6,019 nt of DNA from SAR202 cluster bacterium (GTDB lineage Bacteria > Chloroflexota > Dehalococcoidia > SAR202 > CAJWER01). Positions 3,661 to 6,019 of the stretch are shown piece after piece (the first letter of the stretch is position 1; each line of letters starts with the position of its first letter). Both the position numbers and the translations under genes were made by a program. The notes beneath the pieces were generated by a model, which searched no databases, had not been told where the DNA came from, and saw only the letters and a program-made list of their open reading frames with translations. The stretch lies in assembly GCA_030740335.1 (NCBI GenBank), contig JASLXL010000064.1, positions 1-6,019 of the forward strand, written 5' to 3'.

Positions 3661-3750
3661 AGTCCTAACCTTTCAGGCTCCTCACCACCTCGCATGACCT
3701 TGCCTCTGGGAGCAGTATAGGCTAGGGGGAAAAGGGAGCTAGGGCGACCA
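3661..3750 (-). repeat. Dispersed repeat, copy A
   Basis: This stretch aligns with 4667-4760 over about 90 bases with scattered substitutions and small gaps. The best block is TGCCTCTGGGAGCAGTATAGG (3701-3721) against GCCTCTGGGGACAGTATAGG (4711-4730). The right end overlaps the last codons and the premature stop of the PD40 relic (3744-3739), so the repeat appears to begin where that gene is cut off. Although a frame is open across it on the minus strand, the sequence shows no protein motif. Confidence 0.6.
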
Positions 3751-3995: not shown

Positions 3996-4490
3996 TTAAA
4001 TTTCATGTGGGGTGATTACCACAATCGGTATATGGCGTGAAGTTGCTCTCATATAATTATCATAGCCTCCATATGTAGCAACTGCTTTTCCCCACATCTC
4101 CTCGTACCCAGGGTCAGTTGTGTCTATTATGGAAGCTTTAGCTTGTTTGACTTTAGCCCCAATTCTAATCTGCACTGCGGGGTTCTGCAGAATGTTAGTC
4201 AACCAAGCCGGATGAACTGGGCTACCTCCGAAGGATGCAACCAGAATGTATTTTGCCCCATAAGGAATCGCGGTTAGAGGAACACTCCGTTTCTTTCCGG
4301 ATTTCCTGCCCGTCGTTGTCAGTAATGAAAACCTTACTGTGCCAAGTTGTTTTCCGACTCTACCTCTCGAAATACGATAGATGTACCCATGAATCTTCGA
4401 GACAATCCTAATTAAATTGAATTTACCTCTCATTACTCTCCATGCCATTGGTAAACGACTCGACCACAAACGAAGCCTGTAGTATGGCAA
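3996..4490 (-). CDS. Deazaflavin (F420)-dependent nitroreductase-family protein (DUF385/Ddn-like)
   Basis: Up to 164 residues, ending at TAA 3998-3996. 'LLTTTGRKSGKKRSVPL' (56-72) is the family's phosphate/cofactor-binding motif. 'ASFGGSPVHPAW' (85-96) with 'NILQNPAVQI' (99-108) and the end 'TSRHIPIVVI' (150-159) follow in the expected order. Characterised relatives bind coenzyme F420 (some F420, FMN or haem) in a split beta-barrel and reduce varied substrates; the substrate here is unknown. The TTG at 4490 gives the longest form but has no clear ribosome binding site. The ATG at 4433 (residue 20, with GGAGAG just upstream at very short spacing) would give 145 residues, closer to the family, so the start is uncertain. 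The gene is visibly AT-richer than the neighbouring coding regions, which hints at separate acquisition. Confidence 0.85.
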   Translation of the reverse strand: MPYYRLRLWSSRLPMAWRVMRGKFNLIRIVSKIHGYIYRISRGRVGKQLGTVRFSLLTTTGRKSGKKRSVPLTAIPYGAKYILVASFGGSPVHPAWLTNILQNPAVQIRIGAKVKQAKASIIDTTDPGYEEMWGKAVATYGGYDNYMRATSRHIPIVVITPHEI

Positions 4491-4598
4491 TTTGAGACAA
4501 TGCTACCCAGAATTTATAAACACTTCTCTAAACCCCCCAGAAGGCAATACCCCAATAACCAATGTCTTTAAGGATGGCTGTGTATCTGGAGGATATAG

Positions 4599-4640
4599 TG
4601 GAGCTGAGGGGATTTGAACCCCTGACCCCCTCCTTGCAAA
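4599..4640 (-). pseudogene. 3' half of a tRNA-Ala(TGC)
   Basis: On the minus strand the sequence runs from an anticodon loop TTTGCAA (4640-4634, anticodon TGC) through the 3' anticodon stem GGAGG, the variable loop and a perfect T arm AGGGG-TTCAAAT-CCCCT. It ends with the acceptor strand CAGCTCC and A73 at 4599. The T at acceptor position 70 would form the G3-U70 pair that identifies tRNA-Ala. The 5' half cannot be found: the preceding bases do not pair with the anticodon stem and instead lead into the dispersed repeat. CCA is not encoded. Such halves, cut at the anticodon loop, are typical of tyrosine-integrase attachment sites. Confidence 0.75.
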
Positions 4641-4648
4641 GCGCAGTC

Positions 4649-4760
4649 GTACCTAACCCCCATGGGACTCCTAGCCCTTAAGTTTTCCACCCACCACCCC
4701 GCATAACCCTGCCTCTGGGGACAGTATAGGTTAAGGGGCAAGGGGGTAGGGGAGTGACCG
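4649..4760 (-). repeat. Dispersed repeat, copy B (longest copy)
   Basis: This copy combines the parts seen separately elsewhere. Its left part (4649-4676) matches 2099-2127, and 4667-4760 matches 3661-3750. It begins nine bases beyond the tRNA-Ala 3' half, in the place where the 5' half of the tRNA should be. G- and C-rich runs such as AAGGGGCAAGGGGGTAGGGG (4733-4752) are prominent. No coding signal is seen. Confidence 0.6.
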
Positions 4761-4777
4761 AACAATGTAGCTTGCGT

Positions 4778-4796
4778 TTGCTAACATATTGCTAAC
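4778..4796. repeat. Direct repeat TTGCTAAC x2, 11-bp period
   Basis: TTGCTAAC occurs at 4778-4785 and again at 4789-4796, exactly one helical turn apart. Together with a similar pair at 5033-5051 it flanks the tRNA-Arg relic. Closely spaced short direct repeats near tRNA attachment sites are commonly arm-type binding sites of tyrosine integrases or excisionases; that role is inferred here. Confidence 0.5.
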
Positions 4797-4872
4797 GTAC
4801 TCGGCAACACGTCGTAACACCATTCAGCATGTTAGATACGGTAGGGAGAGATACTGACGAACCACACGTTCT

Positions 4873-4960
4873 AAGCCCGTACTCAAATGTATAGAACAAC
4901 ACCCGGTGCTACGTTCTTCGGAACCGAGGGTCGTGGGTTCGAATCCCTCCGGGCGCGCCA
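4873..4960 (+). pseudogene. Decayed tRNA-Arg(TCG) with intact 3' half and encoded CCA
   Basis: The 3' half is well kept: loop CTTCGGA (4916-4922, anticodon TCG), stem ACCGA, variable loop GGGTC, T arm GTGGG-TTCGAAT-CCCTC (one T-T mismatch), acceptor CGGGCGC, G73 and CCA (4958-4960). The 5' half is recognisable but decayed. AAGCCCG (4873-4879) stands where GCGCCCG is needed. TACTCAAATGTATAGAACA follows the usual TAGCTCAATTGGATAGAGCA with a lost G10 and several changes. CGGT (4904-4907) can pair with ACCG (4923-4926), but eight extra bases GCTACGTT separate it from the anticodon loop. The mismatched acceptor stem and the insertion make function unlikely. Isotype is read from the anticodon and from similarity to bacterial tRNA-Arg. 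Confidence 0.65.
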
Positions 4961-4969
4961 CCTTTCCAC

Positions 4970-5020
4970 CGCATAACGAAGGCGTCCACGGGTTATAGCC
5001 CGGGACGCCTTCGTTATGCG
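4970..5020. repeat. 18-bp perfect inverted repeat downstream of the tRNA-Arg relic
   Basis: CGCATAACGAAGGCGTCC (4970-4987) and GGACGCCTTCGTTATGCG (5003-5020) are exact reverse complements. After a single bulged A, CGGG (4989-4992) pairs with CCCG (4999-5002) around the loop TTATAG, giving a nearly continuous 22-bp stem. It starts nine bases after the encoded CCA. The only downstream T-run is TTTT at 5030-5033, ten bases away, so an ordinary intrinsic terminator is doubtful. A tRNA-processing or termination hairpin, or a recombination-related site, are alternatives. Confidence 0.75.
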
Positions 5021-5032
5021 TAACGTCCGTTT

Positions 5033-5051
5033 TGGTCACGAAATGGTCACG
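5033..5051. repeat. Direct repeat TGGTCACG x2, 11-bp period
   Basis: TGGTCACG occurs at 5033-5040 and 5044-5051 with AAA between. Repeat length (8) and period (11) are the same as in the TTGCTAAC pair at 4778, but the sequence differs. The two pairs lie on opposite sides of the tRNA-Arg relic, as integrase arm sites often do. No integrase gene is present in the window. Confidence 0.5.
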
Positions 5052-5129
5052 GATTCCCTGCGACCGCATCACTGAGCGCGATATTGCATATGGCCAGAGT
5101 CGTATGGTAGTTTGACTGGACAACTTAAT

Positions 5130-5220
5130 ACCCGTCTCGAGCGGTAGGCGAGGCCCTCAGGCCAGCGACCCTACCCGGCAACCTTAACTCTAAAGGTGCC
5201 CTGAGGAAACGACGAGGTCC
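5130..5220 (+). promoter_or_regulatory. SAM-IV-like (SAM-I/IV clan) riboswitch aptamer
   Basis: The conserved core of the SAM clan is present: CCGGCAAC (5175-5182) and GGTGCC (5195-5200) on either side of hairpin P3 (ACCTT 5181-5185 with AAGGT 5193-5197). P2 is GGTAGG (5143-5148) with CCTACC (5170-5175). The P2 loop carries CCTCAGG (5155-5161), which pairs perfectly with CCTGAGG (5200-5206) just after P3; this pseudoknot placement is characteristic of SAM-IV. P1 is CGTC (5133-5136) with GACG (5211-5214), and the P1-P2 joint contains the usual GAG. There is no SAM-I-type P4 arm. An intrinsic terminator begins 24 bases later, so S-adenosylmethionine-dependent attenuation of the small genes at 5322-5743 is the likely output. 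I see no good promoter upstream; TTGACT at 5112-5117 lacks a properly spaced -10. Confidence 0.7.
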
Positions 5221-5243
5221 GTCAAGGACAAAGGGTCCGGCAA

Positions 5244-5271
5244 GCTCTCCGTACTTCGGAGGGCTTTTTTT
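5244..5271 (+). terminator. Intrinsic terminator of the riboswitch leader
   Basis: GCTCTCCG (5244-5251) pairs with CGGAGGGC (5257-5264), with one G-T pair and loop TACTT, followed directly by seven T (5265-5271). It lies between the aptamer and the small genes, as in transcriptional attenuation. The 3' strand of P1 (GACGAGG, 5211-5217) can pair imperfectly with CTCTCCGT in the left arm and might act as an antiterminator. GGAC (5226-5229) has two mutually exclusive partners, GTCC 5217-5220 and GTCC 5235-5238, which also suggests switching. Confidence 0.85.
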
Positions 5272-5304
5272 ATTGCCTCTCGTCTACCTGCTCTACGGCG
5301 GCAG

Positions 5305-5316
5305 AAAGGAGGTGAT
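5305..5316 (+). promoter_or_regulatory. Very strong Shine-Dalgarno sequence deciding a TTG start
   Basis: AAAGGAGGTGAT matches the 16S rRNA anti-Shine-Dalgarno almost fully. GGAGG ends nine bases before TTG 5322. Such a complete site upstream of a rare start codon supports translation of the 65-codon frame. Confidence 0.8.
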
Positions 5317-5321
5317 TAGAT

Positions 5322-5519
5322 TTGCCGAACGTGCGCAACTTGCAGGAATTAGAGGAGTACTCGCGTCAGATCGCAAAAGGGTTAGACACGTTGGAGTTGG
5401 TGTCGCTAGAAGAGCTAGTGAGGCGGACGGGCTGGGATCATGCCAAGAATATCGGCGCCATTATGGTGTCGTCACCACCACGTACCAAGAAGGGGAATTC
5501 AATTTGCCAAAACGATTGA
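5322..5519 (+). CDS. Small unrecognised protein, first of a tandem pair (65 aa)
   Basis: TTG start with a near-perfect ribosome binding site and stop TGA 5517-5519. I do not recognise the family. The first 40 residues are charged and probably helical ('LQELEEYSRQIAKGLDTLEL', 7-26; 'VSLEELVRRTGWDH', 27-40). Then comes the short hydrophobic 'NIGAIMVSSPP' (43-53) and a basic end 'RTKKGN'. There is no signal peptide or membrane segment. The 'IGAIMV-x-SPP' part recurs in the next gene, with clear identity at DNA level as well (5448-5478 against 5646-5676), so the two are probably diverged duplicates. Its 3' end overlaps the start of the second gene by 16 bases, and it supplies that gene's ribosome binding site. 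Expression is probably governed by the SAM-type leader upstream. Confidence 0.7.
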   Translation: MPNVRNLQELEEYSRQIAKGLDTLELVSLEELVRRTGWDHAKNIGAIMVSSPPRTKKGNSICQND

Positions 5520-5743
5520 CGATGCAGGAATTCGATTCACTTTTACAGGGACTTTTCAAAGAGTACGGCATATCGGGGTATCGCCCGGGAAAGTGGGCGG
5601 AGGAGGAGTTAGACACGTGGGAGACGGACTCGGATCCTATGACGACTATCGGCGCTATTATGGTTCCGTCACCCCCGGCTACGACCCGGAAGTCTAGCCG
5701 TAGCCGGAGAAGGAAGTCCAAGTCCCGCGCTATAGACGACTAG
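5504..5743 (+). CDS. Small unrecognised protein, second of the pair, with basic Ser/Arg/Lys tail (79 aa)
   Basis: I chose TTG 5504 because AAGGGG (5490-5496 region) lies about seven bases upstream and the start mirrors the first gene (TTG CCG/CCA, then a CAGGAATT motif, 'LQEL' against 'MQEF'). ATG 5522 is an alternative. Residues 7-45 are acidic to neutral ('EFDSLLQGLFKEYGISGYRP', 'KWAEEELDTWETDSD'). 'TIGAIMVPSPP' (48-58) matches residues 43-53 of the first protein. The C-terminal tail 'TRKSSRSRRRKSKSR' (61-75) is strongly basic and could bind nucleic acid; that is inference. No known domain was recognised. The start lies inside the first gene in another frame, so the two are likely translationally coupled. 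A strong terminator follows 18 bases after the stop. Confidence 0.65.
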   Translation: MPKRLTMQEFDSLLQGLFKEYGISGYRPGKWAEEELDTWETDSDPMTTIGAIMVPSPPATTRKSSRSRRRKSKSRAIDD

Positions 5744-5761
5744 GCGTGAGGCAGGTCAGCT

Positions 5762-5807
5762 GGGGCGCGCTAGTAGCTTTGAAGGAGCTGCCAGCGCGCC
5801 CCTTTTT
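5762..5807 (+). terminator. Intrinsic terminator ending the small-gene cassette
   Basis: GGGGCGCGCT (5762-5771) pairs perfectly with AGCGCGCCCC (5793-5802), with an inner AGCT/AGCT pairing, followed by five T (5803-5807). It lies 18 bases after the stop of the second small gene and separates the cassette from the gene starting at 5952. Confidence 0.85.
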
Positions 5808-5827
5808 GTCTCCCAATGTCTGGCACG

Positions 5828-5843
5828 GGTAGCCGTCGCTACC
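5828..5843. repeat. Small hairpin in the leader of the last gene
   Basis: GGTAGC (5828-5833) and GCTACC (5838-5843) form a 6-bp stem with a CGTC loop in the region between the terminator and the next gene. It has no T-run. Its role is unknown, and a chance occurrence is possible in this GC-rich stretch. Confidence 0.3.
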
Positions 5844-5951
5844 GCTATTATTCTTCCGCAGAGCCGCAGCACAAGCGCCGGCGGCAGCCCGGTTGCGTCC
5901 AGGGCGTCGCGTCCGTACACTGCGGCCACGTACACCCTCATGAGGAACGCC

Positions 5952-6019
5952 ATGACCGCGAGAGATGCCCAGCACATCGGGTCCGACCGGCAGCTGTTCG
6001 TAGACGAGCACTGGATCGC
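5952..6019 (+). CDS. Start of a glycosidase/sialidase-like 'QLFVDE' protein, cut by the window edge
   Basis: Only 22 codons are visible from ATG 5952. GAGGAA (5942-5947) lies four bases upstream and favours this ATG over the in-frame ATG 5940, which has no ribosome binding site. The segment 'IGSDRQLFVDEHWI' (9-22) resembles the start of uncharacterised proteins of environmental bacteria that read 'R-QLFVDD-LI' and carry glycosyl-hydrolase-like beta-propeller folds. This would match the carbohydrate theme of the DUF6259-like gene at the other end. No signal peptide precedes the motif. The call rests on a single motif. Confidence 0.55.
   Translation, partial: MTARDAQHIGSDRQLFVDEHWI

What the first reader, a model, noticed from the sequence alone, without database searches (positions are those of the whole stretch)
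5130..5743. SAM-IV-like riboswitch and attenuator leading into two tiny unknown genes
A complete SAM-clan aptamer (P1-P3, pseudoknot, GGCAAC/GGTGCC core) and an intrinsic terminator precede a pair of small genes with no resemblance to methionine or SAM metabolism. Riboswitches of this class normally control methionine or sulfur genes, so small basic or amphipathic proteins as the output would be new. It lies next to tRNA relics, so the cassette could be mobile.
Basis: partly seen in the sequence, partly recalled or inferred. Interest (0 to 1): 0.75.

Follow-up and report, generated by a model that had tools for sequence, protein, structure and literature searches.

The report
SAM-sensing switch before shuffled small genes
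A stretch of bacterial DNA of unknown origin carries a genuine but unusual RNA sensor of the SAM-IV type in front of two tiny related protein genes whose relatives were found only on short, probably environmental database contigs, so a switch best known from methionine genes seems here to govern something unknown.

Summary
Window 5133-5252 matches Rfam SAM-IV at 37.1 bits (cut-off 38), E=6e-4. P1, P2a and pseudoknot PK-1 all form and, against 30 methionine-linked SAM-IVs, carry five two-sided compensatory changes. P4 is absent, as in SAM-IV; the second pseudoknot PK-2 was not found. A strong terminator follows. The two small frames are overlapping paralogues (65 and 79 aa) of a family of 12 further database proteins, all on short contigs; none was found in the genome and viral collections, nor for gene 2 in phages or plasmids. 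Members are mosaics: shuffled fronts, a fixed IGxIMV core, alternative tails.

Of 43 SAM-IV hits in 296 genomes, 30 precede methionine/sulfur enzymes, but none of the 11 hits under 90 bits does. The tRNA pieces are 3' halves; no integrase was seen in the seven frames scanned.

Best reading: a SAM-IV-type off-switch for a small-protein pair made when SAM is scarce. Ligand, switching and protein function are untested; the switch-gene link rests on one locus.

The parts
5133..5252 (+). SAM-IV-type aptamer: P1 5133-5136/5211-5214, P2a 5141+5143-5148/5170-5176, P2b 5152-5154/5161-5163, PK-1 5155-5160/5201-5206, P3 5177-5179/5198-5200 and 5182-5185/5193-5196, possible P5 5217-5220/5226-5229
   Evidence: RF00634 match 37.1 bits E 6e-4; pairs checked
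5242..5271 (+). Intrinsic terminator (attenuator): 10-pair hairpin 5242-5266 and U run to 5271
   Evidence: site; z -4.5, 0 of 200 shuffles
5274..5301 (+). Post-terminator leader that can pair with the aptamer 5' strand 5133-5155 (-29.6 kcal/mol), mutually exclusive with the aptamer; its first bases can instead pair with the ribosome-binding site
   Evidence: long helix matched by 23 of 2000 and 28 of 2000 shuffles; the helix masking the ribosome-binding site (5271-5285 with 5304-5317) is no better than shuffles (737 and 632 of 2000)
5305..5314 (+). Ribosome-binding site AAAGGAGGTG of small gene 1
   Evidence: read from sequence
5322..5519 (+). Small gene 1, TTG start, 65 aa, QE...TGWDHAKNIGAIMVSSPP + short tail KKGNSICQND
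   Evidence: relative P0008 97% identical
5504..5743 (+). Small gene 2, TTG start at 5504 (79 aa) or 5516 (75 aa, TTGA overlap with stop of gene 1), QEF...IGAIMVPSPP + basic tail RKSSRSRRRKSKSRAIDD
   Evidence: relatives P0001 95%, P0002 83%; those begin at the equivalent of 5516
5762..5807 (+). Long GC-rich hairpin and T run, likely terminator of the pair
   Evidence: -40.3 kcal/mol for 5746-5812, z -4.8; not listed by the scan
4591..4645 (-). Part of a tRNA-Ala, by my reading its 3' half (relic)
   Evidence: matches annotated tRNA-Ala; incomplete
4901..4962 (+). Part of a tRNA-Arg, by my reading its 3' half (relic)
   Evidence: matches annotated tRNA-Arg; incomplete

Best explanation
A working SAM-IV-type riboswitch controls a co-transcribed pair of small paralogous proteins. 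Shown by sequence: the aptamer with its SAM-clan core, the terminator, the overlapping small frames and their mosaic family. Inferred: SAM is the ligand; with SAM bound the aptamer holds its 5' strand, the terminator stops transcription and, in transcripts that run through, the leader 5271-5285 masks the ribosome-binding site (off). Without SAM the 5' strand (5133-5155) pairs with 5274-5301 instead, opening the ribosome-binding site (on). The proteins would thus be made when SAM or methionine is short. My most likely reading of the proteins is short, largely unstructured accessory adaptors: an N-terminal helix, a fixed IGAIMV-x-SPP motif that docks on something, and in gene 2 an arginine/serine-rich tail suited to nucleic acid or the ribosome. 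Several recombining copies probably exist per genome or population. My odds: riboswitch plus real paralogous genes about 0.85; SAM-dependent off-switching of the pair about 0.55; the adaptor role about 0.25.
For: SAM-IV match; all P1, P2a and PK-1 pairs kept with five two-sided changes against 30 methionine-linked SAM-IVs: P1 1, PK-1 2, P2a 2; GGCAAC/GGTGCC core kept. Terminator z -4.5. Mutually exclusive long helix, matched by about 1% of shuffles and 21 of 2351 control windows; with the aptamer forced, GGAGG is predicted paired (unpaired 0-0.05), when free 0.34-0.95. Coding: 4 synonymous against 1 non-synonymous difference between the paralogues over the ten core codons; ribosome-binding site and TTGA overlap; 12 related database proteins. 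Tandem pairs are suggested elsewhere: P0007 and P0010 both list a 1055-base contig, P0002 and P0011 both list 3426 bases. Mosaic: P0004 and P0007 share 100% of the first 18 residues but 64% of the middle; P0005 and P0009 share 96% of the middle but 61% and 44% of front and tail.
Against: The score is below the curated cut-off (37.1 against 38). PK-2, a SAM-IV feature, is not found. The masking helix and both antiterminator candidates are no better than shuffles. The folding model forms the terminator equally with and without the aptamer (pair probability 0.97 and 0.97 at 5274), and the TTG start is more paired in the free state (unpaired 0.01-0.03) than with the aptamer (0.78, 0.33, 0.00), which goes against the on-state. 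No shuffle or slide control was run on the compensatory counts. Over the full 54-nt repeat the paralogues show no third-position bias. No DNA relative of the locus could be fetched, so the link of this RNA to these genes is seen once. The structure models are poor (pLDDT 59), so the adaptor role rests on composition alone.
Confidence: 0.55

Rival explanations
1. Leftover riboswitch: the aptamer came from a lost methionine operon and now happens to sit before unrelated small genes without regulating them.
For: Low score and no PK-2; the region holds relics: partial tRNAs and degraded repeats; the model shows no gating of the terminator; the link is seen in one locus only.
Against: Two-sided changes keep P1, P2a and PK-1 paired, which drift would not be expected to do; the terminator is intact and the leader runs straight into a ribosome-binding site.
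Confidence: 0.2
2. The aptamer is a divergent SAM-clan RNA that senses another ligand, and the small genes belong to that ligand's biology.
For: None of the 11 SAM-IV hits under 90 bits is followed by the usual methionine/sulfur enzymes, and one of them (L026) reads AGCTCC where the other divergent rows read GGCAAC or AGCAAC, so the low-scoring group may include changed specificities.
Against: The window keeps the GGCAAC/GGTGCC core.
Confidence: 0.1
3. The small genes are precursor peptides (RiPP-like): N-terminal helix as leader, cut and modified near the IGAIMV-SPP core.
For: Short tandem paralogues with a low-confidence N-terminal helix, overlapping and mosaic.
Against: The most conserved parts are the core and, in 8 of 13 members, the C-terminal tail, not the front; no modification enzyme or exporter among the seven frames scanned; no significant Pfam, PHROGs or NCBIfam match.
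Confidence: 0.12
4. The small frames are not expressed proteins but a repeated, non-coding or decayed element.
For: P0012 shares only the front and runs off into an unrelated sequence, P0011 has a cut tail; no third-position bias over the whole repeat; the structure models are poor.
Against: Synonymous changes in the core, ribosome-binding site, TTGA overlap, open frames kept in 11 database proteins with the core.
Confidence: 0.08

Closest known systems
SAM-IV riboswitch (Rfam RF00634)
   Same: 4-bp P1, four-base turn, P2a/P2b, PK-1, P3, no P4, a 3' region with GGCAAG
   Different: 37 bits against 84.9-116.6 for 33 of 43 sampled hits; no PK-2 found; followed by a terminator; stands before unknown small genes
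Divergent SAM-IV RNAs before other genes in sampled genomes (L025, L026, L032, L034, L036 here)
   Same: Same architecture, scores 45.6-60.4 bits, not followed by the usual methionine enzymes
   Different: Mostly larger, unrelated proteins; the L032 copies keep a plausible PK-2 (CCACC/GGTGG, by eye); no relative of the window's small proteins in 396 sampled genomes apart from one rejected hit
SAM-I (RF00162) and SAM-I/IV (RF01725; number recalled) riboswitches
   Same: Shared ligand core
   Different: SAM-I has a P4 helix, absent here; SAM-I/IV lacks PK-1 (PMC6890682, passages seen), present here

Membership tests
SAM-IV riboswitch | Score above the Rfam curated cut-off (38 bits) | tested here: not met
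   37.1 bits, E 6e-4
SAM-IV riboswitch | 4-bp P1 and four-base turn before P2 | tested here: met
   CGUC/GACG, turn UCGA
SAM-IV riboswitch | PK-1 between the P2 loop and the strand after P3 | tested here: met
   5 of 5 aligned pairs, two with two-sided changes
SAM-IV riboswitch | No P4 helix between P3 and P1 | tested here: met
   After the PK-1 strand (ends 5206) only AAAC remains before P1 at 5211
SAM-IV riboswitch | P5 hairpin 3' of P1 | tested here: inconclusive
   Rfam placement breaks pairs; GUCC/GGAC 5217-5229 possible but competes with other 4-bp hairpins
SAM-IV riboswitch | PK-2 between the P3 loop and the 3' end | tested here: not met
   Only 4-5 base partners, all in the terminator or U run
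SAM-IV riboswitch | Binds SAM | not testable with these tools
   needs in-line probing; the GGCAAC/GGTGCC core is kept
SAM-I riboswitch | P4 helix | tested here: not met
   four bases between the PK-1 strand and P1
SAM-I/IV riboswitch | Absence of PK-1 | tested here: not met
   PK-1 present; definition from passages of PMC6890682
RiPP precursor | Adjacent maturation or export genes | tested here: inconclusive
   None among the seven frames scanned; only 276 bases of window lie beyond gene 2, so downstream is open
Mobile gene cassette or integrated element | Integrase or paired attachment sites | tested here: inconclusive
   partial tRNAs, no integrase among the seven frames scanned; window ends nearby

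The most novel reading that the evidence does not exclude
A SAM-IV variant without PK-2 controls a rapidly recombining multi-copy family of small proteins, built from interchangeable front, middle and tail modules around a fixed IGAIMV core, that cells deploy when SAM runs short. That would be a SAM-linked variable small-protein system of unknown purpose outside methionine metabolism.
Probability: 0.2. Interest if true: 0.75.

Novelty: new variant of a known kind. Interest (0 to 1): 0.48.

Why it matters
If the leader responds to SAM, the target genes say what else cells do when SAM is scarce, and an unknown mosaic protein family gets a testable condition of expression. The side result, that low-scoring SAM-IV RNAs in the sampled genomes sit away from the usual methionine genes, suggests a wider set of SAM-clan switches with unexplored targets or ligands.

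Tried and rejected
Host identity: no whole genome is held for the window. The second genome scan, with the alanine-racemase-like protein, gave one relative at 36% in a record titled Agrococcus sp. (1 of 20 pattern matches), too distant to name the host. The phylum used is that of this record's genome; no tool named it, and I take it as Actinomycetota from the title alone. Whether the window is actinobacterial is unknown.

Small-protein relatives: none confirmed in genome contigs (80 pattern matches) or viral contigs (150); none for gene 2 in phages or plasmids by tblastn; gene 1 was searched there only as DNA inside 4590-6019, which matched tRNA stretches in the rows shown. In 396 genomes the single hit, G154 at 6.5e-4 with one stop inside, looks by eye like an antisense or shifted reading of an RHS-like repeat and has no SAM RNA: rejected. 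Weak DprA winged-helix match (E 0.016, below cut-off; 2 of 13 members): rejected. PDB profile search: one match, E 1.6. PADLOC: none. Fold searches were not run because both models are poor. The database sources are listed only as ena and jgi; that the contigs (543-3426 bases) are metagenomic is my inference.

An exact search of viral contigs for one intergenic repeat (that at 3683 and 4692) found nothing. Literature: searches (25 of 72 papers listed) showed no title or abstract on SAM-IV with small unknown proteins that I recognised; the 2008 SAM-IV paper is not held. Passages only were seen of PMC6890682, PMC3766115, PMC8190616 and PMC9232105. PMC8190616 counts 16 SAM-IV among Mycolicibacterium prophages.

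Mended on the way: one search had P1 and P5 off by one base; one search forced inner P3 pairs out of register, so its forced energies and accessibilities are replaced; one search listed inner P3 pairs out of register, so P3 is not counted, nor is the P2a pair opposite a gap in all 30 references. The 32-sequence alignment misplaced P1 of several divergent rows and was not used.

Full report
Observation. The aptamer is real. Rfam SAM-IV aligns end to end at 5133-5252 with 37.1 bits, E 6e-4 for the 6-kb window against 4227 families. The score is 0.9 bits short of the curated cut-off; one lower match of the same clan was left out by the tool and is not named. I compared the window with all 43 SAM-IV hits from 296 genomes (strict filters were used there, so weak hits may be missing). 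In a 44-sequence alignment the window keeps 39 of 58 columns that are near-invariant among the 30 methionine-linked RNAs. Of its 19 departures, 8 fall into four pairs that changed on both sides and still pair; a fifth such pair lies in a variable part of P2a. By helix these are one in P1, two in PK-1 and two in P2a, and all 4, 5 and 7 pairs of these helices form. PK-1 columns are shown unpaired in the Rfam match, so PK-1 adds. These are counts for one sequence against a related set, without shuffle, slide or phylogenetic control.

What differs from SAM-IV. The solved SAM-IV has P1, P2a, P2b, P3, P5, PK-1 and PK-2 and no P4; SAM-I has P4; SAM-I/IV lacks PK-1 (PMC6890682, passages). The window fits SAM-IV except that no PK-2 partner for its P3 loop exists at the usual place; only 4-5 base matches to the terminator or U run occur. 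P5 is ambiguous. I therefore call it SAM-IV-like rather than a full member.

Expression platform. The terminator 5242-5266 folds far better than shuffles. The folding model forms it alike with and without the aptamer (0.97 and 0.97 for a transcript ending at 5274), so its gating is not explained. Beyond it, 5274-5301 can pair with the aptamer's own 5' strand 5133-5155 at -29.6 kcal/mol; 23 and 28 of 2000 shuffles and 21 of 2351 other stretches do as well. With the aptamer forced, the same leader covers GGAGG of the ribosome-binding site (unpaired 0-0.05); in the free fold GGAGG is more open (0.34-0.95). Against this reading, the TTG start is nearly fully paired in the free fold and partly open with the aptamer. 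The covering helix by itself is not better than chance (737 and 632 of 2000), nor are antiterminators on the 5' arm (1351 and 1505 of 2000) or the 3' arm (534 and 315 of 2000). An off-switch is the natural reading, with modest support.

The genes. Gene 1 (5322-5519) has AAAGGAGGTG at 5305-5314 before its TTG start at 5322. Gene 2 begins at TTG 5504 or at TTG 5516, overlapping gene 1's stop as TTGA; relatives P0001 and P0002 start at the latter. The two are paralogues; over I-G-A-I-M-V-x-S-P-P their DNA shows 4 synonymous and 1 non-synonymous difference, while over the 18-codon repeat differences fall 2, 6 and 5 on the three codon positions. Database relatives number 12 (7, 3 more, 2 more), from sources listed as ena or jgi on contigs of at most 3426 bases. 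Eleven have the IG(A/V)IMV core; P0012 does not. No family library gives a significant match.

Mosaic family. Splitting at the core gives incongruent similarity. P0004 and P0007 are identical over 18 residues, then 64%. P0005 and P0010 share 94% at the front, 50% in the middle and 41% in the tail. P0005 and P0009 share 96% in the middle, 61% at the front and 44% in the tail. Tails come in types: RKSSRSRRRKSKSRAIDD in 8 of 13 aligned members, KKPQQQ..RKQGE in 2, KKGNSICQND in 2, QKGE in 1. Where two members seem to share a contig, by equal listed contig length (1055 and 3426 bases), and in the window, exactly one of the two carries the first tail. This points to tandem pairs and recombination among copies; copy number per genome is unknown.

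What SAM-IV normally controls. Of the 43 hits, 30 are followed, by a frame starting within 450 bases, by a relative of one of four reference genes: class-V aminotransferase 16, MetY-like 9, MetX 3, MetZ-like 2. Nine of these proteins were checked in Pfam: Aminotran_5 in 4, Cys_Met_Meta_PP in 4, alpha/beta hydrolase in 1; the MetX, MetY and MetZ labels are mine from recall. The other 13 are not: all 11 hits under 90 bits and 2 of 32 above. One of those two (L042) lies near a rhodanese gene; the other (L040) is unassigned. Five of the 11 come from one genome and two from another, so they are not independent. Of the 11, L038 precedes a weakly glutathione-transferase-like frame, below Pfam's cut-offs (L037's similar frame was not scanned); L039 a solute-binding-like protein by eye; L025 and two of three in L032 a TY-Chap3 gene; the third in L032 and L024, L026, L034, L036 frames without Pfam match. 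The window belongs with this low-scoring group.

Surroundings. The left 4.5 kb carries three minus-strand genes (DUF6259, an alanine-racemase/D-serine-dehydratase-like protein, an F420H2-dependent quinone reductase). Between these and the riboswitch lie pieces of tRNA-Ala and tRNA-Arg, degraded repeats and a perfect 18-bp inverted repeat with arms at 4970-4987 and 5003-5020. These resemble integration footprints, but no integrase was seen among the seven frames scanned, so mobility stays open.

Verdict. Observation confirmed; interpretation partly supported. A SAM-IV-like leader without PK-2 before an unknown mosaic small-protein pair is a new variant of a known kind, of moderate interest. The main weakness is that the leader-gene link is seen once and nothing is known of the proteins' role.

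Noticed in passing
L032:2012-6315 (G285:C4) and L033, L034 in the same genome: One genome holds five SAM-IV-like RNAs; three, plus a SAM-I RNA, lie within 4.3 kb, each before a different uncharacterised gene (two with TY-Chap3), near transposase-like frames by eye.
   Followed up: partly
L035:1830-3332 (G237), L047 (G119), L050 (G222): Relatives of one uncharacterised 442-aa protein lie near SAM-clan RNAs in 3 of the 6 genomes (of 396) that have a match: SAM-IV in two, SAM-I in one, the last a weak match.
   Followed up: partly
L036:2161-2279: A 58-bit SAM-IV hit directly before a 98-aa frame without Pfam match.
   Followed up: no
L026:1501-1620: A SAM-IV hit whose GGCAAC core reads AGCTCC, possibly a changed ligand.
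   Followed up: no
4970-5020: Perfect 18-bp inverted repeat (-44.8 kcal/mol for 4965-5025, z -10.7) just after the tRNA-Arg piece, without a clear U run.
   Followed up: no
3683-3736 and 4692-4745; 2108-2135 and 4657-4684: Degraded intergenic repeats, 83% and 86% identical; the first was not found in viral contigs by exact pattern.
   Followed up: partly
3996-4490: The F420H2-dependent quinone reductase gene has GC3 of 0.40 against 0.66 and 0.71 in the other two minus-strand genes, so it may be acquired.
   Followed up: no
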